Position numbers and translations under genes: made by a program
The notes under the pieces: generated by a model
What the model saw: only the letters and a program-made list of their open reading frames with translations
Database searches by the model: none
Told to the model about the DNA's origin: nothing
Part shown: piece after piece, positions 4,841-61,043 of the stretch
How positions within the stretch are numbered: position 1 is the stretch's first letter
Layout: every line of letters begins with the position of its first letter
From: Bradyrhizobium sp. SZCCHNS1050
GTDB taxonomy: Bacteria > Pseudomonadota > Alphaproteobacteria > Rhizobiales > Xanthobacteraceae
Length of the DNA stretch: 64,000 nucleotides
Reading direction: 5' to 3'
Assembly (NCBI RefSeq): GCF_032484785.1
Contig: NZ_JAUETR010000001.1
Span: forward strand, 5,335,501-5,399,500

Positions 4841-5620
4841 GTGGCGAACAATAAGGTCAAGCAACTCTGGGCCGAAGGCAAGACGGTGGTGAATGCCTGG
4901 CTCGCGATCCCCTCGGGCTTCTCCGCGGAGGTCGTGGCTCAGTGCGGCTTCGACAGCGTCACCGTGGACATGCAGCACGGGGTGCAGGACTATCTGTCGA
5001 TGGTGCAATGCTTCCAGGCGATGCATGGCCATCCGGTCACGCCGATGGTGCGCGTGCCGTGGAATGAGCCCGGCATCATCGGCAAGGTGCTCGATGGCGG
5101 TGCCTATGGTGTCATCTGCCCGATGGTCAACACAGCGCAGGAAGCGCGCAACCTCGTTTCCTATTCCAAATATCCGCCGAAGGGTGTGCGCTCCAACGGT
5201 CCGATCCGCTCGGGCATGTATGGTGGTGCGGGCGAGTATCAGAAGACGGCCAACGACGAGATCGTGCTGCTGCCGATGATGGAGACCAGGACCGCGGTCG
5301 AGAACATGGAAGCCATTCTCGATGTCGAAGGCATCGACGGCGTCTATATCGGGCCCTCCGATCTCGGCTTTTCCTATGGCCTGGTGCCGAAGCTCGATCG
5401 TGACGAGCCGGAAATCCTCAAGATCTATGAGAAGATCGTGAAGGAGTGTGGCAAGCGTGGGCTCAATCCCGGCATTCACTGCAGCGGCGCCGAGGGTGCG
5501 GTCCGCGCCATCAACATGGGCTTCAAGCTCGTGACCTTGTCGAACGAGGTCGGCCTGATGCAGGTCTATGCCCGCCAGCAGGTCGCGCAGACCCGCAAGG
5601 AATCCGGCGGCAAAGCGTAA
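4841..5620 (+). CDS. HpcH/HpaI family class II aldolase
   Basis: This is a metal-dependent aldolase of 259 residues cleaving 4-hydroxy-2-oxo acids to pyruvate plus an aldehyde. Catalytic His46 (VDMQHGVQDY) and Arg71 (VRVPW) align with the HpaI His/Arg pair, and the metal ligands are Glu148 (MMETR) and Asp174 (IGPSDLG). Members act on 4-hydroxy-2-oxoheptanedioate (HpaI) or 2-dehydro-3-deoxyglucarate (GarL). The hpa genes 2 kb away favour the former; the sugar-acid-type genes on either side favour the latter. Confidence 0.85.
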   Translation: MANNKVKQLWAEGKTVVNAWLAIPSGFSAEVVAQCGFDSVTVDMQHGVQDYLSMVQCFQAMHGHPVTPMVRVPWNEPGIIGKVLDGGAYGVICPMVNTAQEARNLVSYSKYPPKGVRSNGPIRSGMYGGAGEYQKTANDEIVLLPMMETRTAVENMEAILDVEGIDGVYIGPSDLGFSYGLVPKLDRDEPEILKIYEKIVKECGKRGLNPGIHCSGAEGAVRAINMGFKLVTLSNEVGLMQVYARQQVAQTRKESGGKA

Positions 5621-50982: not shown

Positions 50983-51155
50983 CGGCATTCCCTTCCCATC
51001 GTTGCCAGCTTTTAGTCAGCTCAGACGGGACCGGACAAGCGCCACGTTCATGGCTGGTTGACCGAGCCATGAGACGGGCGCAGCCCTTATCTTGGGCGGT
51101 GCGGCTTTTGCATGCTAAACAGGCGCAAAGTCCCACCGGAGTTACGAGATTCCCC

Positions 51156-52325
51156 ATGCCCATCGTCAACCGCGTCGCCGATCTGCAGCCCGATATCCAG
51201 GCCTGGAGGCGGGATATCCATTCGCATCCGGAGCTGCTCTACGACGTGCACCGGACGGCGGCCTTCGTCACCGAGCGGCTGCGCGAGTTCGGCTGCGATG
51301 AGGTCGTGACGGGCCTCGGCAAGACCGGCGTGGTCGGCGTCATCAAGGGCCGCAAGCCCGGCCACGGCGAGGTGAAGGTGCTCGGACTGCGCGCCGACAT
51401 GGACGCGCTGCCGATCGAGGAGGCGACCGGGCTGCCCTATGCCTCGAAGACCCCGGGCATGATGCATGCCTGCGGCCACGACGGTCACACCGCGATGCTG
51501 CTCGGCGCCGCGCGCTATCTCGCCGAGACCCGCAACTTCGCCGGCGAGGTCGCGGTGATCTTCCAGCCCGCCGAGGAGGGCGGTGGCGGTGCGGACGCGA
51601 TGATCAAGGACGGGCTGATCGACCGTTTCAAGATCGACCAGGTTTACGGAATGCACAACGGGCCCGGCCTGCCGGTCGGCGCGTTTGCCATTCGCCAGGG
51701 CCCGCTGATGGCATCGACCGATGCGGTCGACATCGCGATCGAGGGCCATGGCGGTCATGCCGCCAAGCCGCACAATTGCATCGACTCCCTGCTGGTCGGC
51801 GCCCAGCTTGTCACCGCGCTGCAGCAGATCGTGTCGCGCAGCGTCGACCCGCTGGAGGCCGCGGTGTTGTCGATCTGCGAGTTCCACGCCGGCAATGCCC
51901 GTAATGTGATTCCGCAGAGCGCGGTGCTGCGCGGCACCGTGCGGACGCTGACGCCGAAGGTACGTGAGCTGATGGAGAAGCGCGTGCGCGAGGTCGTGAC
52001 CGGCGTCGCCCAGATGACCGGCGCCAAGATCGACCTGAACTATGCACGCGGCTATCCTGTCGTCATCAATCACGCCGAGCAGACCGAGATCGCGATCCGC
52101 GCCGCCAGGGAGGTCGCGGGCGACGCCAATGTGCACGAGATGCCGCCGATGATGGGCGGCGAGGACTTCGCCTACATGCTCGAGGCGCGCCCCGGCGCCT
52201 TCATCTTCGTCGGCAATGGCGACAGCGCCGGCCTGCATCACCCCGCCTACAACTTCAATGACGAGGCGATCGTCTACGGCACCTCGTTCTTCATCAAGGT
52301 GGTGGAGAATACGCTGGCGGCGTGA
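51156..52325 (+). CDS. M20 family amidohydrolase (hippurate hydrolase-like)
   Basis: This is a 389-residue zinc-dependent aminoacylase/hippuricase-type enzyme. Metal-binding segments are MMHACGHDGHTAMLLG, FQPAEEGGGGADAMI, YGMHNGPGLP and the C-terminal MMGGEDFAYML. The dimerisation segment IAIEGHGGHAAKPH is present. It hydrolyses N-acyl amino acids or similar amides. ATG at 51156 opens the conserved N-terminus (RVADLQPDIQAWRRDIHSHPEL). Confidence 0.9.
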   Translation: MPIVNRVADLQPDIQAWRRDIHSHPELLYDVHRTAAFVTERLREFGCDEVVTGLGKTGVVGVIKGRKPGHGEVKVLGLRADMDALPIEEATGLPYASKTPGMMHACGHDGHTAMLLGAARYLAETRNFAGEVAVIFQPAEEGGGGADAMIKDGLIDRFKIDQVYGMHNGPGLPVGAFAIRQGPLMASTDAVDIAIEGHGGHAAKPHNCIDSLLVGAQLVTALQQIVSRSVDPLEAAVLSICEFHAGNARNVIPQSAVLRGTVRTLTPKVRELMEKRVREVVTGVAQMTGAKIDLNYARGYPVVINHAEQTEIAIRAAREVAGDANVHEMPPMMGGEDFAYMLEARPGAFIFVGNGDSAGLHHPAYNFNDEAIVYGTSFFIKVVENTLAA

Positions 52326-52802
52326 GGCTCGCGGCCGCGTGCAGCGGCACCGCCGCGATCAGGCACGAAAGTGGACTGGCAGGGCCCGTGCGATGAGCGC
52401 GGGCCTTTTGCTTTCCATATGCACGTCGAGCTTCATGAGCTACGCGAGAATGTGCGCTGCCGCGGAATGAGGTGCGACAATATGCCTGGCGGGTGACATC
52501 CGAGAGCGCAAGACGTCATCACGCGTGGTCACTGCCGGCCTGAGACGACCGCAGTGCGTCGCTCATTCGAGCAATCAACAGGTGTATCTGACAAACTACT
52601 CTATTGTTAAAGAACTAGCTTCATGTTAGTTTTTTTCTGGCTTCGACGACTGGCGAATTGGGACAGCCTGAGCGAAGTGCTTAGCACAGCTACATTGCTT
52701 CAGGTTCTGTGAGTTCAGGGCGCGAGATCACAGAGCTTGTACCGGGACGTTGCTATTTCCTTTCTGAACGATGGCGGTTCTCAACCGACTGGGAGTATAG
52801 GA
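52326..52802. other. Intergenic region upstream of the RiPP cluster
   Basis: These 477 bp contain the amidohydrolase terminator at the left. A distinctly AT-rich tract (about 52575-52640, TGACAAACTACTCTATTG... to TTTTTTTC) probably includes the cluster promoter. A frame joined to the precursor is open from 52737, but a good ribosome binding site points to 52803. Confidence 0.45.
52383..52410 (+). terminator. Terminator after the M20 amidohydrolase
   Basis: GGCCCGTGC (52383-52391) pairs with GCGCGGGCC (52397-52405, one G-T pair) and is followed by TTTTG. Confidence 0.82.
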
Positions 52803-53150
52803 ATGGCTGATCGCGATCCGGCGGAAATGCGCAAGAAGGTCGATCTGGCGCTGAAATCCGTAGTCGACTCAGAGATCGCACGCGCGTCTCTGAAGATCGA
52901 CATCATGGCAGAAGGCGTTCCATTCTCGCGTGGAGCGATCTTCAGCAAGACCAATCCATTCTCGCGCGGCATCGTCTTCAGCCGCCTTGCGGCGATGGAG
53001 CGTCCGGACGAGATGGAACGTGAAATCGCCAACGATCCCGCGGTGTTGGGGGCTCTTGCGGAGCGTCTCACGCAGGTACGGGCGGTGAAGGACCTCAAGG
53101 GTCAATTTAGCGTGCCGCAGGCGGGGGGCGCGCCGAAATCGGTCAGGTGA
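52803..53150 (+). CDS. Putative RiPP precursor with four FS(R/K) hexapeptide repeats
   Basis: This is a 115-residue peptide starting MADRDPAEMRKKVDLALKSV, with GGGAG seven bases before the ATG. A charged leader (residues 1-37) is followed by four consecutive six-residue units (residues 38-61). Each unit ends in Phe-Ser-Arg or Phe-Ser-Lys, giving Phe at 41, 47, 53 and 59. The remaining 54 residues are an acidic/helical follower ending QAGGAPKSVR. It is the first gene before five RiPP-type maturation enzymes, which is why I call it the substrate. No cysteine, signal peptide or membrane helix is present. A core in the middle, rather than at the C-terminus, is unusual. I do not recognise a named precursor family. 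Confidence 0.75.
   Translation: MADRDPAEMRKKVDLALKSVVDSEIARASLKIDIMAEGVPFSRGAIFSKTNPFSRGIVFSRLAAMERPDEMEREIANDPAVLGALAERLTQVRAVKDLKGQFSVPQAGGAPKSVR
52914..52985 (+). repeat. Tandem 18-bp repeats encoding the FS(R/K) core
   Basis: Four 18-bp units encode hexapeptides whose last three residues are FSR, FSK, FSR and FSR, preceded by GVP, GAI, TNP and GIV. Units 1 and 3 share CCATTCTCGCG, while units 2 and 4 share TCTTCAGC. The array therefore looks like a duplicated 36-bp (12-residue) pair. Confidence 0.85.
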
Positions 53151-53389
53151 ATGGATCGATCGTTCGGCTAAGACGGAGCGAAGCGGGCCTGCGATGTCGG
53201 ATCTTTCCGACGTGACGTGTCGTGGGCCCGCCCGCGACTCGCTGGTGCGGATGACGGGCAATGGTCGCCGTCATCAGCGTGACCTTTCCTGATAGCTGCT
53301 CTTGATTCCGGCATCGGTTGCGGTCCTGTCTGACGGCGGGACAGCTTGCGGCCGGCTTCGTTGGCGTATTTCCGGAGGCATGCTCGATC

Positions 53390-54421
53390 ATGAGTGACGC
53401 GTGGACCTGGCGACCGTCGAAATCTGCCTGGCATGAAAAATTCAACGACAGGATCCTGAGATGGCAGCCGGAGGATCGCCTCGGCCTCGACTGCGAGCCG
53501 CTCAAGGCGTCGCTCATCGAAGCCAACGCGCGTGAAGCGGACTGGCTTCGTCATCCCTGCATGAACTCCATCACCTATGAGGGGCATGACAAGAGCCCGC
53601 AGCGTGATCTGCAGGTGGCGATCTGGACGGCGGCGAATGCGCCGACCGCATCCACCTCGCTGACGACGCCGGAGCCGCTGACCTTGTGGTCGCCGGTCGG
53701 AGGCTACCGGATCGAGGCCGGCAGCTATGACCTGAACGAGCTCGCTGGGCTGCTCCCGATGAAGGAATGGCCCTACGACATATCGGTCGACGTGGGGTGC
53801 CACTCCCTCGGATTTCCGATTCCCGACACCTGGGCCGAGCACACCGATCTCTCGGCCGACGAGCAGGCCCGGATGACGCGCGAGGTGACGAACGCGCTCG
53901 AGATCCTCGTGACCGCCGCGAAGAAGTTTCCCGAGTGCGTGAATTGGGTGTCCGATGTGACGCGGGTCCTGATCCCCCTGCGCAGCAGCGAGCGATCCTA
54001 TTTCCGCAGCGGGTCGCAAGCCGATGTGCCCGGGATGGTTTACGCCGACCTGTTCGGCGGCCTGATGCAGGTGATGGAGGCCATCGTCCACGAATCCGCG
54101 CATCTGCATCTGTTCATGGCGGAGGCGTCGGGACCCCTGGTGGATCCGCAGCACCAGGGGCGCTACGCATCGCCGTTGCGGCCGGAGCCGCGGCCCTTGC
54201 GCGGGATCCTGCTGGCCTTTCACGCCATCGCCTATATCTGCGCCTTCTATCGTGAGGCCGAGAAGCAAGGGTTCGGCGGATCAGCCGAGTATCAGGCCGA
54301 GCTTGCCAATATGCTGACCAAGCTCAAGGAGGCGCAGGTCGTACTGGACGGTGCCCGGCCGTTCCTGACCGAGGACGGCCGCATCTTCGTCGATCGCACC
54401 GCCGAGATTGCGTACCAATGA
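53390..54421 (+). CDS. HExxH-type putative peptide beta-hydroxylase (first)
   Basis: This 343-residue soluble protein has the metal-binding motif HESAH at residues 234-238 (VMEAIVHESAHLHLF). The HExxH family linked to radical SAM/SPASM RiPP enzymes includes alpha-ketoglutarate-dependent peptide beta-hydroxylases, so hydroxylation of the precursor is the favoured role. A peptidase role cannot be excluded by motif alone. The second His pair (HLHLF) and a later LLAFHAIAYICAFYREAE helix may complete the site. The ATG at 53390 follows GGAGG. Its stop overlaps the radical SAM start (ATGA). The 239-bp gap after the precursor has no clear terminator. Confidence 0.72.
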   Translation: MSDAWTWRPSKSAWHEKFNDRILRWQPEDRLGLDCEPLKASLIEANAREADWLRHPCMNSITYEGHDKSPQRDLQVAIWTAANAPTASTSLTTPEPLTLWSPVGGYRIEAGSYDLNELAGLLPMKEWPYDISVDVGCHSLGFPIPDTWAEHTDLSADEQARMTREVTNALEILVTAAKKFPECVNWVSDVTRVLIPLRSSERSYFRSGSQADVPGMVYADLFGGLMQVMEAIVHESAHLHLFMAEASGPLVDPQHQGRYASPLRPEPRPLRGILLAFHAIAYICAFYREAEKQGFGGSAEYQAELANMLTKLKEAQVVLDGARPFLTEDGRIFVDRTAEIAYQ

Positions 54422-55623
54422 ACGACGGTCCCCATCTTCACTTCGTGTTCAAGGTCGCGTCGCGCTGCAATCTGAACTGCTCCTATTGCTACGTCTACAA
54501 CAAGGGCGACAGCACGTGGAGAGAGCGGCCCGCGATCATGGATGATGAGGTCGTCGAGATCGCGATCGACCGCATCCGCCGCCATTGCCAGGCAACGGGT
54601 CAGAGCTATCTGACGATCACCTTTCATGGCGGCGAGCCGTGCCTGGTCAAGCAGGAGCGGTTCAGCTCATGGTGCCGGAAGATCAAGGAGGGGCTGTCGG
54701 GCGTCGCGCGGGTGCAGCTCTGCATGCAGACCAACGGCACGCTGCTCGACGACGGCTGGGCCGAGATCATCAAGAGGTTCGACATCGATCTCGGGATCAG
54801 CATCGACGGAACCCCCGAGGTGCATGATGCCTTGCGCGTCGATCATGCCGGGCGTGGCTCCTATCGCGATGTCGAGCAGGGCCTTGCCGTGCTGCGCCGC
54901 GCCGGGATTCCGCTGCGCTTCCTGTCGGTGATCCAGCTCGGGGCGAGCGGTGCCGCGGTGCATCGCCATCTGACGAGCCTGGGCCCGGCCTCCATCGACT
55001 ATCTGCTGCCGGATTTCACCCACGACACCATCGCGGCGGTTCGCGACCGGTATGGACCGACACCCTGTGCCGATTTCCTGATCCCGATCTTCGAGGATTG
55101 GTGGCGGGACGGCACGCTGGATCTCCGGATCAAGATCTTCTGGAACATCGCTTGGCTGGTCCAGGGCGGGGAGAGCCGCATCGACATGCTCGGCAACCAG
55201 CCGCTGACCTTCCTGTTCGTCAACACCGATGGCGAGATCGAAGGGCTGGATGTGCTGCGGGTCTGCTACGACGGCGCCGCGCGCACCGGCCTGAATGTGC
55301 GGACGTCCGACTTCATGGACGTCCGGCACGCCGGCGAATTCCATCGTGCGGCGGTGTTCGAGGGCATGCCGCTGCCCGACGGCTGTCGCGCGTGCCGCGA
55401 GCGCGACACGTGTGCCGGCGGCTATCTTCCGCATCGCTATGCATCGCGGACGGGCTTCAACAATCCGACGGTGTGGTGCGCCGATCTCCTGAAACTGTTC
55501 GATCACGTCCGCGAGCGGCTGGGAACGTCGGTGGAGGAAACCAAGCTGCGCCGGGCTCATCTCCTCGACACCGCCCTGCGGCGGGCGGTGGGGCTGCAGC
55601 AGGAATCTCCGGCCATCGGCTGA
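54418..55623 (+). CDS. Radical SAM/SPASM peptide-maturation enzyme (FxsB-like)
   Basis: This 401-residue radical SAM enzyme has cluster cysteines 17, 21 and 24 (ASRCNLNCSYCYVYN), followed by TFHGGEPCLV and MQTNGTLLDDGW. A C-terminal SPASM-like set of cysteines lies at 323, 326, 332 and 354 (GCRACRERDTCAGGYLPHRY, then TVWCADL). This is the layout of FxsB and other cyclophane-forming enzymes, which join an aromatic side chain to the beta-carbon of a nearby residue. The repeated F-S-R/K triplets in the precursor fit that chemistry. It overlaps the upstream HExxH gene by 4 bp. Confidence 0.87.
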   Translation: MNDGPHLHFVFKVASRCNLNCSYCYVYNKGDSTWRERPAIMDDEVVEIAIDRIRRHCQATGQSYLTITFHGGEPCLVKQERFSSWCRKIKEGLSGVARVQLCMQTNGTLLDDGWAEIIKRFDIDLGISIDGTPEVHDALRVDHAGRGSYRDVEQGLAVLRRAGIPLRFLSVIQLGASGAAVHRHLTSLGPASIDYLLPDFTHDTIAAVRDRYGPTPCADFLIPIFEDWWRDGTLDLRIKIFWNIAWLVQGGESRIDMLGNQPLTFLFVNTDGEIEGLDVLRVCYDGAARTGLNVRTSDFMDVRHAGEFHRAAVFEGMPLPDGCRACRERDTCAGGYLPHRYASRTGFNNPTVWCADLLKLFDHVRERLGTSVEETKLRRAHLLDTALRRAVGLQQESPAIG

Positions 55624-55716
55624 GGTCGGACCTCGATCGCCGACTTATGCGCGCTGTCGCGCGGGCCTGCTGCAAGGCGGCGTGGTCGAGAGTGGAACGT
55701 GGAAGGAGTGCGCACG

Positions 55717-56832
55717 ATGACGATCACCCTGATGCCTGACGTTCTGCGCTGGAATGACTACGAGGCGGTGTGTGACGGCGTGCTTGCGACCTATGGCGAC
55801 CGGCTCGCGCAGAAGCTGGGCGAAGCCCTCGGCGAGATCGGCCGCGACGACCCTGCGGGCGGGGACGAACTGCGCAGCCTGATGGATCGCGTGGCGGACG
55901 ACGGCTTCATGCGGGTTCTCGATGCCCCCGAGACCTCGTTCCGTCTGCTGTCGGCGCCGGGCCGGTACGCCGAGGACAAGGGACGATTTCTGCGCGATTC
56001 ATTCGTGGCTGAGGCCTTGCGCCAGGGACTCGAGATCACCGCCGATCGGGAGGTGTGGACCGCGCTCGGCGATCGCGGCTATCGGCGTGACGGCGCCTGC
56101 ATCTGGCCGCAGATCGAGGGCATGCCCGTGACCGATTACGGCAGCCCGCATGCGGTCAAGGTGGATCTGTCCGGCCAGGACCGGCCGGTCCCGCCGCAGC
56201 GCCCGCCGTTCTCCGAGGACGAAATCGACCGGCTGCGTGATCTGCTGCGCCGGTCGCGGGCGGCGCTCGAACGGACCGAAGCGGGGCTTCCCCGCTTCGT
56301 CGCGCGCTTCAACATCGCGCTCATCCTGCAGAAGGATCCGGAGAGCCCGGGCAGCTTCTCGTCAGGATCGAACGGCTACTACATCGGCCGCACCTTCCTC
56401 GCCAACCCGCATCTTCCCGAGATCGACGAATCCCACATCGCCGATGCGCTCGTCCATGAGGGCATCCACGCGCTGCTCTACATGCAGGAGCAGGAACAGC
56501 CCTGGTTCCTCGATTCGACGGCGAAGGGCTCGCTGCCGCGCATCACCTCGCCCTGGAGCGGCAGCCGGCTGCCGTTTCCGTCCTTTCTACAGGCCTGTTT
56601 CGTCTGGTACGGCCTGCTGCACTTCTGGAGCCTGGCGATGCAGTCCGGCGCGTTCGAGCAGGGCGTCGCGATGAAGCGCATCCAGCTCTGCCTGCGCGGC
56701 TTCTGCAAGCAGCCGTTGCTCGACAGCATCGCGGAGTTTTCGTCGGTGGTCGACGCCGACGTGCAGAAGACGATCGAGGAGATGCAGAACGTCGTGGTCG
56801 GCGCCTTTGCCGATGTCCGCCGTGCGGGCTGA
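55717..56832 (+). CDS. HExxH-type putative peptide beta-hydroxylase (second)
   Basis: The 371-residue protein has HEGIH at residues 247-251 (ADALVHEGIHALLYMQEQEQPW), in a context unlike the first HExxH protein. The segment after it (PWSGSRLPFPSFLQACFVWYGLLHFW) resembles the helical part of the same enzyme class. Two separate HExxH proteins flanking one radical SAM gene suggests two hydroxylation positions or a partner subunit. ATG at 55717 is preceded by AAGGAG; a GTG at 55699 is possible. The gap from the radical SAM gene is 93 bp. Confidence 0.7.
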   Translation: MTITLMPDVLRWNDYEAVCDGVLATYGDRLAQKLGEALGEIGRDDPAGGDELRSLMDRVADDGFMRVLDAPETSFRLLSAPGRYAEDKGRFLRDSFVAEALRQGLEITADREVWTALGDRGYRRDGACIWPQIEGMPVTDYGSPHAVKVDLSGQDRPVPPQRPPFSEDEIDRLRDLLRRSRAALERTEAGLPRFVARFNIALILQKDPESPGSFSSGSNGYYIGRTFLANPHLPEIDESHIADALVHEGIHALLYMQEQEQPWFLDSTAKGSLPRITSPWSGSRLPFPSFLQACFVWYGLLHFWSLAMQSGAFEQGVAMKRIQLCLRGFCKQPLLDSIAEFSSVVDADVQKTIEEMQNVVVGAFADVRRAG

Positions 56833-56871
56833 TGCGACGACGTCAGCGGCGGTTGAGTGTGGAGGCTGCGG

Positions 56872-58161
56872 ATGGCGAATGGAACGGCACTGCATCGGGA
56901 TCGTCTGGCGCGTCCGGTCCCGAAGAGCTTTCGATGGGGAACTCAGCGGTCGGTGCCGCCGTCGCAGACGGTCGAGCGGGTGCGTCCGTTCCTGGGAGAA
57001 ATGGGAATCACGCGCATTGCTGACGTCACGGGTCTCGACCGCGTCGGCATTCCCGTCACCATGGTCTGCCGGCCGAACTCGCGCTCGGTCTCGGTGTCGC
57101 AGGGCAAGGGGCTGACCCTGGATGCTGCGAAGGCGTCGGGCGTGATGGAATCGATCGAGCTGTTTCACGCCGAGACGATCACATTGCCGCTGAAGCTTGC
57201 GACCTATGCCGAGCTGATCAGCGACCATGAGGTGGTCGACGTGGCGGACTTGCCGCTGATCGCCGGCGGGCGTTTCCATCCCGATCTGCAGATGCTGTGG
57301 ATCGAAGGGCGCGATCTCATGGCCGATGCCGACGTCTGGGTGCCGTTCGAGATGGTGAACCTGTCGACCTCGCGGCCGGAGATGCCGGCCGGCAGCTTCA
57401 TCTCGTCGTCGAACGGGCTGGCGTCCGGCAACCAGCTGATCGAGGCGGTCCTGCACGGCATCTGCGAGGTCGTGGAGCGCGATGCGACCACGCTCTGGCA
57501 CCTCCGCAGTCCGGACGAGCAGCAGAGCCGGCGCGTCGCGCTCGAGACGGTTCAGGACGAAGGCAACCGGCGGCTCCTGGAGATGTGCGAGCGCGCGGGC
57601 CTCGAGGTCGTGGCGTGGGACATCAGCTCCGATGTCGGGCTCGCCGCCTGCCAGTGCCTGATCTTCGATCGTGACGAGGAGCTGGGGCGGGATCTCTACG
57701 CGGCGTTGGGCATGGGCGCGCATCTGTCGCCAGAGATCGCCTTCCTGCGGGCGCTGACGGAAGCCGCGCAGAGCCGGCTGACGCTGATCGCGGGCGCGCG
57801 CGACGACGTGTTCCGCGAGGAATATGACGAGAAGGCGTTGGCCGCACAGTTTCTCGGCGAGCAGCGGGCGCTGCTGCGGAACAGCCCGCCGACGCGAAGC
57901 CTGCGCGAAACTCCGTCGCTGGCAGCGGAGACGTTCAACGATGATCTCGCCGTGGTTCTCGAACGGCTGCAATCCGCCGGTGTCCGGCAGGTGATCGCGG
58001 TCGATCTCACCAAGAGCAGGTTCGAGATCCCCGTGGTGAGGATCATCATTCCGGGGCTCGAAACCTTCGACAAGAATCCTGACTACAGCCCGGGGCGCAG
58101 AGCGCGGGCCTTCGCCGGCGATCAGATCTCGCGGCATCAGCCATCGGGGCATCCGCTATGA
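56872..58161 (+). CDS. YcaO-domain peptide-backbone modifying enzyme
   Basis: This is a 429-residue YcaO protein. ATP-binding signatures are visible: KASGVMESIELFHAET and NQLIEAVLHGICEVVERDATTLW, with a late segment LRALTEAAQSRLTLIAGARDD. YcaO enzymes activate backbone amides with ATP, giving azolines, amidines or, with TfuA, thioamides. It lacks a C-terminal PxPxP tail (ends HQPSGHPL), and no E1-like or dehydrogenase partner is present. TfuA follows with a 4-bp overlap, which favours thioamidation. ATG at 56872 with GGAGG is preferred to GTG at 56857. Confidence 0.9.
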   Translation: MANGTALHRDRLARPVPKSFRWGTQRSVPPSQTVERVRPFLGEMGITRIADVTGLDRVGIPVTMVCRPNSRSVSVSQGKGLTLDAAKASGVMESIELFHAETITLPLKLATYAELISDHEVVDVADLPLIAGGRFHPDLQMLWIEGRDLMADADVWVPFEMVNLSTSRPEMPAGSFISSSNGLASGNQLIEAVLHGICEVVERDATTLWHLRSPDEQQSRRVALETVQDEGNRRLLEMCERAGLEVVAWDISSDVGLAACQCLIFDRDEELGRDLYAALGMGAHLSPEIAFLRALTEAAQSRLTLIAGARDDVFREEYDEKALAAQFLGEQRALLRNSPPTRSLRETPSLAAETFNDDLAVVLERLQSAGVRQVIAVDLTKSRFEIPVVRIIIPGLETFDKNPDYSPGRRARAFAGDQISRHQPSGHPL

Positions 58162-59513
58162 CGTGCATCGTATTCACCGGGCCGACGCTGCATCCGCGCG
58201 ACGCGGCGCTCGAATTGGAGGCCGAGTATCTCCCGCCGGTGCAGCAGGGCGACGTCTATCGTGCTGCGCTGGCGAAGCCTGCGGCGATCGGAATCATCGA
58301 CGGCTATTTCGAGCAGGTGCCCTCGGTGTGGCACAAGGAGATCCTGTGGGCGATGGCCAACGGCATCCACGTGTTCGGCAGCGCCAGCATGGGCGCGCTG
58401 CGCGCGGCCGAGCTGCACGCGTTCGGCATGGAAGGCGTCGGCAAGGTGTTCGCGGCGTATCGCGACGGCGTGTTCGAGGCCGACGACGAGGTCGCCCTGA
58501 TTCACGGACCGGCTGAGCTCGGCTTTCCCGCGCTGTCCGAGCCGCTGGTCAACATCCGCTTCACCCTGCAGAAGGCGGTCGACCATGGCGTGATCTCGGA
58601 GGCGTCCCGCCTGGTCCTGGAGGCGCTCGGCAAGGCAAGCTTCTATCCCGAGCGCAGCTACCCGGCGCTGCTGCAGGGCGCGCGGTCCGACGGCAGCCTA
58701 GCCGCGCAGGAGATCGACGCGCTGGAGGCGTGGCTGCCGGATCACCGCGTCGACCAGAAGCGCGAGGATGCGCTGGAGATGCTGCAGACGATGCGGCGCC
58801 GGTTTGCCGGAGACACGGTGCCCAAGGCGGTCGATTACGCCTTCGAGCACACCCAGCTATGGGACGGCCTGATGCAGGACGCGCAGCGTTCGGCGGCCGC
58901 AGCGCGCGAGACGGTGATGCCGGACGGAACGCCGCACCTGCTGGACGAGCTGCGCCTGCTGGCCGTGCGCGGCAGCGACCTGTCCGACAAGGCGATCGCG
59001 CGATTTCTCGCGGCATCGGAGGCGAAGCGCCGCGGCATCAGGGTCGACGCCCAGGCGCTGAGCGCGGAGATCATCCGGTTTCGGCAGAGCAGGGATTTGA
59101 TGGACCCGGCCGAGCTCGAGGCATGGATCGCGCGCAACGGCCTGACCCGGTCGGAATTTCTGGAGCTGATGCTGGACGAGGCGCGCATTCGATCGTTCAG
59201 GAAGGGGCTCAACGGCTCGGCCCTGAATGCGCTGGCCGACTGGGCGCGGATCGACGGCCATTTCGAGGATCTGCTGGCGCGCGCGCGCGACAAATGCGAC
59301 GTGCTGAAGCAGACGGAGCTCGACGGCGGTGGCAGTCCGGCGGACTATGGCCTCGGCGAGGACGAGCTGATGGCGAGATACCTGCCCGCGATGCAGGCCG
59401 GCGCACCCGACCGGGACGAGACGGACGTGGCGGTGTCGCTCGGCTTTCCCGACCGAGCAGCGCTGATCCAGGCCTTGCTGCGTGAGCACGTCTACACGTC
59501 GCGCAAATCCTGA
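58158..59513 (+). CDS. TfuA-like protein with a long C-terminal extension
   Basis: The 451-residue protein carries a TfuA core in roughly the first 200 residues: CIVFTGPTLHP, AIGIIDGYFEQVPSVWHKEILWAMANGIHVFGSASMGALRA in parts, GVFEADDEVALIHGP and ALSEPLVNIRFTL. TfuA proteins help YcaO enzymes install thioamides by delivering sulfur. The remaining 250 residues are helical and charged, much longer than a minimal TfuA; they may bind the substrate or another enzyme. Its ATG overlaps the ycaO stop (ATGA). It is the last gene of the cluster; no transporter or peptidase gene follows. Confidence 0.87.
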   Translation: MTCIVFTGPTLHPRDAALELEAEYLPPVQQGDVYRAALAKPAAIGIIDGYFEQVPSVWHKEILWAMANGIHVFGSASMGALRAAELHAFGMEGVGKVFAAYRDGVFEADDEVALIHGPAELGFPALSEPLVNIRFTLQKAVDHGVISEASRLVLEALGKASFYPERSYPALLQGARSDGSLAAQEIDALEAWLPDHRVDQKREDALEMLQTMRRRFAGDTVPKAVDYAFEHTQLWDGLMQDAQRSAAAARETVMPDGTPHLLDELRLLAVRGSDLSDKAIARFLAASEAKRRGIRVDAQALSAEIIRFRQSRDLMDPAELEAWIARNGLTRSEFLELMLDEARIRSFRKGLNGSALNALADWARIDGHFEDLLARARDKCDVLKQTELDGGGSPADYGLGEDELMARYLPAMQAGAPDRDETDVAVSLGFPDRAALIQALLREHVYTSRKS

Positions 59514-59561
59514 GGCCCCGTTGTCGCGTGGGGGCGGCCCGGTCGAGGCCATGCCGGCCCG

Positions 59562-61043
59562 TCACGCCGCATGTGCGCGCCTGATCGCGGCCGCGGCAAT
59601 CTTCAGGTCCTCGACGAAGCGCTCATATTCTCGCGCCTTGGCGTCGGCATCCGGCAGCCGCAGCAGGTAGGACGGGTGCACCGTCACCATCGCCTTGGGG
59701 CCGTCGGGCAGGTCGGCGACGTGACCGCGGTTCTTGGTGACCTGCGTGATCTTGCCGAACACCGCTTGCGCGGCGGTCGCGCCCATCGCCACCACCAGTG
59801 CCGGGCGCACGGCGGCAAGTTCGCGCTCGTACCATTGCCGGCAGGCCTTGATCTCCGGCGTGTTCGGCTTCTGGTGCAGCCGGATCTTGCCGCGCGGCAC
59901 GAACTTGAAGTGCTTCACCGCATTGGTGACGTAGACCTTGGACCGGTCGATGCCGGCCTCTTCAAGCGCGCGGTCCAGCATCTGGCCGGCCGGGCCGACG
60001 AAGGGATGGCCGGCGAGGTCCTCCTTGTCGCCGGGCTGCTCGCCGACCAGCATCAGCGGCGCATGCGCGGGGCCTTCGCCGAACACGGTCTGCGTGGCGT
60101 CCTTCCACAGCGGGCAGGCGCGGCAGGAAGCGGCTTCTTCGCGCAAGGTCTCAAGATCGGTGGCCTCGACATCACGTGAGGTCTCAGCAGCGGGCGCGTG
60201 GGCTTTCGGCTTGCGGCTCATCGCGGTCTCCTCGACGCGTTTCTGCGGCTTGTGGGGTTCAGTGCCGGCTTCGGCGATCATCGATGACGTGCGCCTGGAG
60301 GCGGCCGCGATCAGCGGCTGGATCAGCTTGGCCTCGGGCAGGTTCTGCCAATATTTCTTCGGCATCTCCTTTTCCATCGCCTTCACTTTCAGCCGTGCCG
60401 GATTGAAAATGCTGGCATAGTAACGCAGCCAGACCTCTTCGAGCCGGTCCTCCGACGGCGCTTCAGCCTTGCTCACACCGGGCGTGAAGCTGACGCGGCT
60501 GCCGTCCCAATGCGCACAGAGTTCGGGCGTCAGGATCGACCACGGCATGTCGGCGAAGCGGCGGGCGAAAAATGGCGCGGCGCGCTCGACGATGTGGTGC
60601 TCGGGCTCGAACCAGGCGACGTAGCGCGCCTCGCGCTCGCGGCCGACCTCGCGGAAGCGGACGAAGGCATGCATCTTGTGGACGTCGCGGCGCACCGCCC
60701 GCGCCAGCGCGTTGGCCTGGGCGACATCAGGATCGGTCGCGATCTCCATGAGATCGTGGTTGGTCCGCAGACGCCACAGCAGCCGGTAGAGCAGGGCGAA
60801 GCGGTTGGGATCATTGTGCAGAATCGCGCTCTCGGCGAGCTCCATGAAGCTCGCCGGCACTGAGAACGCGCCCTTTGGCACCTCGGGAAGCTGCGTGTCG
60901 GCCTGATCGTCGAACAGGTCGGGCGCTGCGCCCTTGACGCGCCAGCTGACGTCGGCCGGCTTGACGTCGTTCATCGCCAGCGCCCGCGCCGCCTGACGCC
61001 AGCCGTCGAAATCAGTGTCGCTGTCGAGGGTTACGACGTGCAT
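59562..61043 (-). CDS. UdgX-type uracil-DNA-binding protein fused to a DUF4130 domain
   Basis: This 493-residue fusion has an N-terminal DUF4130 domain (to about residue 260, with YRLLWRLRTNHDLMEIATDPDVAQANALARAVRRDVHKM in parts). The C-terminal family-4-like uracil-DNA glycosylase domain has iron-sulfur cysteines 307 and 310 (CRACPLW), the active-site GEQPGDKEDLAGHPFVGPAG and VHPSYLL. It also has the UdgX loop PRGKIRLHQKP, whose His would covalently trap uracil. Similar fusions sit beside the radical SAM protein encoded upstream. A role in DNA repair after damage is likely. Confidence 0.88.
   Translation of the reverse strand: MHVVTLDSDTDFDGWRQAARALAMNDVKPADVSWRVKGAAPDLFDDQADTQLPEVPKGAFSVPASFMELAESAILHNDPNRFALLYRLLWRLRTNHDLMEIATDPDVAQANALARAVRRDVHKMHAFVRFREVGREREARYVAWFEPEHHIVERAAPFFARRFADMPWSILTPELCAHWDGSRVSFTPGVSKAEAPSEDRLEEVWLRYYASIFNPARLKVKAMEKEMPKKYWQNLPEAKLIQPLIAAASRRTSSMIAEAGTEPHKPQKRVEETAMSRKPKAHAPAAETSRDVEATDLETLREEAASCRACPLWKDATQTVFGEGPAHAPLMLVGEQPGDKEDLAGHPFVGPAGQMLDRALEEAGIDRSKVYVTNAVKHFKFVPRGKIRLHQKPNTPEIKACRQWYERELAAVRPALVVAMGATAAQAVFGKITQVTKNRGHVADLPDGPKAMVTVHPSYLLRLPDADAKAREYERFVEDLKIAAAAIRRAHAA

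What the first reader, a model, noticed from the sequence alone, without database searches (positions are those of the whole stretch)
52803..59513. Candidate new multi-enzyme RiPP pathway: precursor + 2 HExxH + radical SAM/SPASM + YcaO + TfuA
Six consecutive plus-strand genes, three junctions with 4-bp overlaps (HExxH/radical SAM, YcaO/TfuA by ATGA; others 93-239 bp), combine three maturation chemistries rarely seen together. A radical SAM/SPASM enzyme suggests cyclophane cross-links, two HExxH enzymes suggest alpha-ketoglutarate-type beta-hydroxylation, and YcaO with TfuA suggests thioamidation. The upstream precursor has a strictly periodic core. I know of FxsB/HExxH pathways and of YcaO-TfuA pathways separately, but not this combination with this precursor type; I could not search for precedent.
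Basis: partly seen in the sequence, partly recalled or inferred. Interest (0 to 1): 0.95.

Follow-up and report, generated by a model that had tools for sequence, protein, structure and literature searches.

The report
FSR-repeat peptide tailoring gene cluster
Six neighbouring genes in a soil bacterium, by its closest relatives probably a Bradyrhizobium, encode a small peptide with a six-residue repeat and five enzymes predicted to cross-link, oxidise and sulfur-modify it, a set for which our literature searches listed no described pathway, so it would likely make a new kind of natural product.

The parts
52550..52802 (+). AT-rich upstream region, probable promoter and leader of the operon (inferred; no sigma-70 consensus found)
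   Evidence: GC 0.42-0.44 in the 100-base windows covering 52550-52699 against 0.656 for the window; 0 promoter-like sites in 52300-59600
52803..53150 (+). Precursor peptide, 115 aa: leader 1-39, core 40-61 (PFSRGAIFSKTNPFSRGIVFSR), conserved follower 79-102 (my division)
   Evidence: 10 homologues of 51-85% identity besides its own cluster
53183..53231 (+). Stem-loop between precursor and enzyme genes, possible attenuator or mRNA stabiliser (inferred)
   Evidence: the 156-nt stretch folds at -69.9 kcal/mol, z -2.27, 3 of 200 shuffles as good
53390..54421 (+). HExxH-1, aKG-HExxH-type peptide oxygenase homologue (HESAH)
   Evidence: TIGR04267 93.7 bits, cut-off 40; ChlH 8s5f E=0.0013 with SPLRPEPRP aligned to SPWREDLRP
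54418..55623 (+). Radical SAM/SPASM enzyme of the three-residue-cyclophane group (FxsB/YhhB/ChlB-like)
   Evidence: CNLNCSYC; TIGR04269 301.5 bits (cut-off 370), NF041707 YhhB 296.2 (cut-off 445); ChlB domain 9gm3 E=1.5e-58
55717..56832 (+). HExxH-2, divergent aKG-HExxH homologue (HEGIH)
56872..58161 (+). YcaO, predicted ATP-dependent thioamide-forming enzyme; the only PF02624 match in the genome
   Evidence: PF02624 275.5 bits; MJ1094 E=9.5e-36; single match in the genome
58158..59513 (+). TfuA: residues 1-219 TfuA domain; residues about 256-354 weakly SurA-like helical region

Best explanation
This six-gene operon encodes a conserved FSR-repeat peptide and five enzymes that likely tailor it as a RiPP: the radical SAM enzyme is predicted to join each Phe to the Arg or Lys two residues on (up to four three-residue cyclophanes), the HExxH enzymes would then oxidise the cross-linked core, and YcaO with TfuA would likely swap backbone oxygen for sulfur. 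The conserved N-terminal leader and C-terminal follower probably serve as recognition handles (inferred). The most likely thioamide sites are the two invariant glycines after FSR, Gly44 and Gly56, because the YcaO and TfuA resemble the McrA-glycine pair (inferred). HExxH-1 is the better candidate hydroxylase; the role of HExxH-2 is less certain. Shown here: gene order, families, precursor conservation, the HExxH-2 and TfuA folds (as models), locus history. Inferred: every reaction, its order and its sites. Leader removal and export would use functions encoded elsewhere.
For: Gene content and order. Precursor family: core columns 0.93 mean majority identity against 0.61 leader, 0.67 linker, 0.85 follower, 0.32 tail; 44 of 44 core sites F-S-[R/K]; the window precursor has no Cys, which argues against thioether or thiazole chemistry on it. 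The radical SAM matches the ChlB domain over residues 4-372; XncB links Trp, and YhhB Tyr and His, to Cb of Arg at i+2 (PMC11002830, passages). [quoted passage not shown] Fold of HExxH-2. YcaO best solved relative MJ1094; TfuA domain 6xp8. The single genomic YcaO and both TIGR04267 proteins lie here. Precursor and HExxH-2 hits share longest-contig lengths 591201, 58049 and 8469. Ten fetched relatives have both flanking genes and no cluster gene between. TfuA is reported as not encoded near suspected uL16-modifying YcaO genes, so a ribosomal substrate is unlikely (PMC13063428, passages).
Against: No product, transcript or mass spectrum. The radical SAM is below the FxsB and YhhB cut-offs, and TfuA and YcaO are below the McrA-pair cut-offs. 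HExxH-2 and its 32 aligned relatives have Ser or Thr where ChlH has the first arginine of RxDxRP. The core has no Asp or His. Among the 120 listed TfuA hits (of 6,335) none shares the contig lengths 58049 or 8469 that precursor and HExxH-2 hits share. No protease or transporter among the six genes.
Confidence: 0.5

Rival explanations
1. Radical SAM and HExxH enzymes modify the FSR peptide, but YcaO-TfuA, though in the operon, acts on another protein or is a dispensable late addition.
For: 0 of 24 other YcaO-TfuA loci read have this radical SAM, HExxH or precursor; the two best radical SAM matches in the plasmid collection (48.4 and 46.0% identity, L008, L009) lie beside an HExxH gene but no YcaO or TfuA; no listed TfuA hit matches contigs 58049 and 8469.
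Against: YcaO-TfuA is joined by an ATGA overlap, lies 39 bp behind HExxH-2, and is absent with the rest of the block in 10 of 10 fetched relatives; it is the only YcaO in the genome; HExxH-2 and TfuA hits share contig lengths 591201 and 8116.
Confidence: 0.22
2. One or both HExxH proteins cleave the backbone (oxidatively or hydrolytically, as PosC and PflC can) to release the core, rather than only hydroxylating side chains.
For: No protease among the six genes; PosC and PflC cut before Ala, partly before Gly in a variant, and PflC hydrolyses truncated peptides (PMC12636437, part 3 of 6); Gly44 and Gly56 are invariant; HExxH-2 lacks the arginines aligned in ChlH.
Against: The radical-SAM-fused HExxH enzyme beta-hydroxylates (PMC12636437, part 1); the precursor has no ARMD motif (sequence).
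Confidence: 0.15
3. YcaO makes oxazolines or other azolines at the core Ser or Thr residues instead of thioamides.
For: The core holds four Ser and one Thr, no Cys (sequence); YcaO also scores with SagD-type TIGR03604, 139 bits, below its cut-off 219.25.
Against: TfuA partner; best NCBIfam model and best solved relative are thioamide-type; no E1-like partner or dehydrogenase among the six genes; no PxPxP in the protein (that a C-terminal PxPxP marks cyclodehydratases is recalled).
Confidence: 0.06
4. The peptide is not a secreted product but a cellular protein modified for a physiological role such as metal handling or signalling.
For: No exporter or protease among the six genes; single precursor match in the genome; long conserved follower.
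Against: Strong core conservation with variable tail, and presence/absence among relatives, fit an accessory metabolite.
Confidence: 0.1

Closest known systems
ChlB/ChlH (radical SAM fused to an HExxH oxygenase, Chlorogloeopsis)
   Different: Here separate genes, two HExxH proteins, a core without Asp or His, plus YcaO and TfuA
Triceptides made by 3-CyFE enzymes (XncB, OscB, MscB, YxdB, HaaB, YhhB)
   Same: Aromatic residue with its partner at i+2; links to Arg known for XncB (Trp) and YhhB (Tyr, His), Phe links known to Asn and Ser (PMC11002830, passages)
   Different: F-S-R/K four times at period 6; Phe-Arg and Phe-Lys are not among the pairs named in the passages read; scores below the FxsB and YhhB cut-offs
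McrA-glycine thioamidation pair (MJ1094 YcaO; TfuA 6xp8)
   Different: RiPP-like operon in a proteobacterium; below both equivalog cut-offs; TfuA carries an extra, weakly SurA-like helical half
TfuA-related clusters mined in PMC8120280 (passages read)
   Same: YcaO-TfuA with further tailoring genes, including radical SAM genes: SPASM-type ones annotated as ranthipeptide enzymes in Sphaerisporangium, Microbispora and Herbidospora, two in Burkholderia thailandensis, B12-type ones in Bradyrhizobium and Desulforegula
   Different: The passages read do not mention HExxH enzymes or an FSR precursor; the radical SAM types named there are ranthipeptide-annotated, B12-type or unassigned
Thioholgamide and engineered thioamidated biarylitides (PMC12951456, passages)
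   Same: Thioamides together with a side-chain macrocycle on one peptide
   Different: Thioholgamide has a different, larger macrocycle with dehydroalanine; the thioamidated biarylitide is an artificial hybrid with a P450 cross-link; here a radical-SAM cyclophane with thioamides would be natural

Membership tests
Triceptide / 3-CyFE pathway | Radical SAM with CxxxCxxC and homology to cyclophane formers | tested here: met
   CNLNCSYC; best models FxsB and YhhB; ChlB domain E=1.5e-58
Triceptide / 3-CyFE pathway | Score above the curated cut-off of an existing subfamily (FxsB 370, YhhB 445) | tested here: not met
   301.5 and 296.2 bits; so not filed as FxsB or YhhB
Triceptide / 3-CyFE pathway | Precursor with aromatic residue and conserved partner at i+2 | tested here: met
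   44 of 44 core sites F-S-[R/K] in 11 sequences
Triceptide / 3-CyFE pathway | C-C cross-link between residues i and i+2 | not testable with these tools
   needs NMR or tandem mass spectrometry
aKG-HExxH peptide oxygenase (TIGR04267) | Curated score and HExxH motif | tested here: met
   HExxH-1 93.7 and HExxH-2 44.9 bits against 40; HESAH and HEGIH
aKG-HExxH peptide oxygenase (TIGR04267) | ChlH fold (HExxH-2 only; HExxH-1 not modelled) | tested here: met
aKG-HExxH peptide oxygenase (TIGR04267) | RxDxRP arginines shared by ChlH and 22nu | tested here: inconclusive
   HExxH-1 has SPLRPEPRP there; HExxH-2 has SPWSGSRLP, and all 33 rows have S-x-W-[ST]; that these arginines matter is inferred
aKG-HExxH peptide oxygenase (TIGR04267) | aKG- and Fe-dependent oxidation of a peptide | not testable with these tools
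   biochemistry needed
YcaO-TfuA thioamidation | Adjacent YcaO and TfuA domains | tested here: met
   PF02624 275.5 bits, PF07812 160.4 bits; 4-bp overlap
YcaO-TfuA thioamidation | McrA-glycine equivalog cut-offs (TIGR03266 365, NF033432 235.2) | tested here: not met
   260.3 and 226.3 bits; so related to, not filed as, the McrA pair itself
YcaO-TfuA thioamidation | Thioamide on the peptide | not testable with these tools
   mass spectrometry needed
RiPP biosynthetic gene cluster | Conserved precursor with leader and core beside tailoring enzymes | tested here: met
RiPP biosynthetic gene cluster | Recognition domain (RRE), protease or exporter | not tested
   none named in the Pfam or NCBIfam scans of the six proteins; no dedicated RRE search was made and the rest of the window was not scanned for them

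The most novel reading that the evidence does not exclude
A natural RiPP pathway that puts side-chain cyclophanes, iron-dependent oxidation and backbone thioamides on one short peptide: a rigid rod of four Phe-Arg/Lys three-residue rings at six-residue spacing with thio-glycines between them, from a precursor family not previously described.
Probability: 0.42. Interest if true: 0.82.

Novelty: new variant of a known kind. Interest (0 to 1): 0.66.

Why it matters
If the reactions are as predicted, this would be a natural case of radical-SAM cyclophanes and thioamides on one ribosomal peptide; in the passages read, thioamides occur with a different macrocycle (thioholgamide) or with an aromatic cross-link only in an engineered hybrid. 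The core is almost invariant, so a small set of co-expressions could settle the chemistry and site rules for F-S-R/K cross-links, for two HExxH enzymes side by side, and for a TfuA with a helical extension.

Tried and rejected
The genome-contig scan with the precursor alignment gave one locus from 59 pattern matches (L005, a Desulfobacterales MAG). The match (+ strand, 5188-5352) overlaps for 98 of 165 bases the start of a 1184-aa minus-strand ORF that reads like Mfd (that name is recalled), so I treat it as a chance match.

A viral-contig scan with TfuA found no relative. Searches for HExxH-2 gave 3 of 146 genus genomes at E<=0.001 (own, plus two weak hits: L003 is a radical SAM-HExxH fusion, L004 was not resolved), 2 of 385 class genomes at E<=1e-10 (the second, with one internal stop, is 25.7% identical and no other cluster homologue was found in the 11 kb fetched, L048), 1 of 265 genus genomes and 3 plasmid records. 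The precursor alignment matched in 1 of 257 genus genomes.

Six ORFs of 402-459 aa that carry an HExxH string in other TfuA loci were tested against NCBIfam and none matched anything. The one CxxxCxxC ORF of 250 aa or more in 24 TfuA loci is HemN. Three ORFs with two or more FS[RK] in L032 and L033 are not precursor homologues, and no ORF in the 24 loci has even two FS[RK] at period 6.
Full report
What is there. The window carries six plus-strand genes between a gene that reads like an M20-family amidohydrolase (51069-52325; name recalled, not scanned) and a convergent gene with a uracil-DNA-glycosylase domain (59562-61043). The precursor (52803-53150, 115 aa) has its repeat in the middle: PFSRGAIFSKTNPFSRGIVFSR, Phe at 41, 47, 53 and 59. 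It is followed by HExxH-1, a radical SAM enzyme, HExxH-2, YcaO and TfuA. Two junctions are 4-bp ATGA overlaps (HExxH-1/radical SAM and YcaO/TfuA); the finding says three but names two. Gaps elsewhere are 239, 93 and 39 bp. A stem-loop at 53183-53231 lies between precursor and enzymes (z -2.27, 3 of 200 shuffles as good), a possible attenuator.

The precursor is a family. A search of 5.8 billion proteins gave 11 proteins at E<=1, one of them the window's own cluster and 10 others of 51-85% identity. In the alignment of the window and those 10, majority identity averages 0.93 in the core (16 of 22 columns invariant), 0.61 in the leader, 0.67 in the linker, 0.85 in a follower at 79-102 and 0.32 in the tail. 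All 44 core sites are F-S-R (32) or F-S-K (12) at six-residue spacing. Gly44 and Gly56, which follow the first and third motif, are invariant. The window precursor has no Cys, His or Trp. Four FS[RK] at period 6 arise in 0 of 200,000 shuffles.

Locus and distribution. The genome (7.6 Mb) has one YcaO and two TIGR04267 proteins, all in this operon, and one precursor match. The closest named homologues (84-94% identity: P0002, P0012, P0013, P0125, P0126, P0127, the last over 71% of TfuA) are from Bradyrhizobium, so the host is inferred to be a Bradyrhizobium; HExxH-2 also has more distant named relatives in Sphingobium, Sphingomonas, Phormidium and Mycobacterium, whose gene neighbourhoods I could not read. 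In 24 same-genus relatives both flanking genes were matched in all; in 23 they lie on one contig, the matches 0.2 to 13.2 kb apart (7.3 kb in the own genome), and in G007 on two contigs. I fetched 10 of those 23: both flanks are there in 10 of 10, and no homologue of the six proteins lies between them; the single weak hit (L117, 40 residues, E=7e-4) lies beyond the glycosylase gene. The block is therefore an accessory insertion or a differentially lost block. Among genus genomes the precursor was found in 1 of 257 and HExxH-2, at E<=1e-10, in 1 of 265.

Does the set travel together? Precursor and HExxH-2 hits share three longest-contig lengths: 591201, 58049 and 8469. TfuA hits share 591201 with both, and 8116 with an HExxH-2 relative. 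The lengths 58049 and 8469 are missing from the 120 listed TfuA hits, which counts against YcaO-TfuA being universal, although only the best 120 of 6,335 are shown. Equal length suggests but does not prove one contig; YcaO and radical SAM were not searched in that database. Of 24 other YcaO-TfuA loci read (all 18 further places in 12 of the 13 matching genomes among 398, fetched, the thirteenth genome being the own one; and 6 plasmid loci, out of 353 matching records), all 24 have the pair and none has a BLASTP homologue of this radical SAM, these HExxH proteins or the precursor. The two best radical SAM matches among 162 plasmid records (48.4 and 46.0% identity) lie beside an HExxH gene but no YcaO-TfuA.

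How it likely works. Three-residue cyclophane enzymes join an aromatic residue to Cb of the residue two on; named pairs include Trp-Arg, Tyr-Arg, His-Arg, Phe-Asn and Phe-Ser (PMC11002830, passages). F-S-R/K fits this geometry, so up to four Phe-Arg/Lys rings are predicted. An HExxH domain fused to a radical SAM enzyme beta-hydroxylates Asp and His and depends on a preinstalled cyclophane; PflC and PosC hydroxylate Gln and cut the backbone before Ala (PMC12636437, parts 1 and 3 of 6). The FSR core has no Asp, His or Gln, so the site is open: Asn51 (10 of 11 sequences), Ser, or aliphatic residues. YcaO-TfuA would add thioamides, most plausibly at Gly44 and Gly56; TfuA is described as a hydrolase acting with a thiocarboxylated carrier, and is not encoded near suspected uL16-modifying YcaO genes (PMC13063428, passages). 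An engineered peptide that received thioamides from ThoH/ThoI and then a P450 cross-link shows such chemistries can coexist (PMC12951456, passages).

Novelty. Eight searches of the open-licence PMC library listed no paper whose title or abstract start describes this combination or this precursor; subscription papers are largely missing, and apart from the five papers cited here (seen as passages, or as parts 1 and 3 of 6 for PMC12636437) I saw listings only. The nearest mining study reports TfuA clusters with radical SAM genes, including SPASM-type ones annotated as ranthipeptide enzymes in actinobacteria and B12-type ones in Bradyrhizobium (PMC8120280, passages), so radical SAM beside YcaO-TfuA is not new in itself; the FSR precursor family and the addition of two HExxH proteins and a cyclophane-type radical SAM are what I found no account of. 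I rate it a new variant of a known kind: a new precursor family with a new set of known enzyme types.

Noticed in passing
L008:6441-11242 and L009:5649-11159 (Rhizobium plasmids NZ_CP050304.1, NZ_CP071682.1): The best plasmid matches of the radical SAM sit in operons with an HExxH protein, an upstream repeat protein (H[DGL]Q[TN]HS motif 7 times in 380 aa and 12 times in 632 aa) and a downstream protein with weak NAL1/S64 protease matches: possibly a second repeat-precursor pathway without YcaO-TfuA; in L009 it lies among conjugation genes.
   Followed up: partly
L010:7087-12071 (Rhizobium etli IE4803 plasmid CP007643.1): Radical SAM/SPASM, HExxH (TIGR04267 47.2 bits), JmjC_2, a hypothetical and a GNAT gene in a row: another multi-oxygenase peptide cluster.
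   Followed up: no
L120:5957-10014 (Azospirillum lipoferum 4B) and L123 (Paracoccus kondratievae): YcaO-TfuA pairs near Crp/Fnr regulator genes, in L120 also ribbon-helix-helix genes; the N-terminal half of TfuA is closer to the window's in Azospirillum (57-59% in L120, L121) than in the other TfuA loci read, hinting at another role of this pair.
   Followed up: no
L003 (G044, same genus): An ORF matching both radical SAM and HExxH proteins in another genome of the genus, the fused ChlB/ChlH-like arrangement.
   Followed up: no
L031:7687-9009, L032:10168-11388, L041:7671-8879, L046:7667-8920, L047:9842-11059: Proteins of 402-440 aa with an HExxH string directly beside TfuA in several proteobacterial loci, with no NCBIfam match (all five) and no Pfam match (three tested); L033 has a similar untested one.
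   Followed up: partly
gap between the M20-like and UDG-like genes, loci L110-L119: The spacer between these two conserved genes varies from 0.2 to 13 kb among relatives: a variable site that may host other accessory genes.
   Followed up: partly
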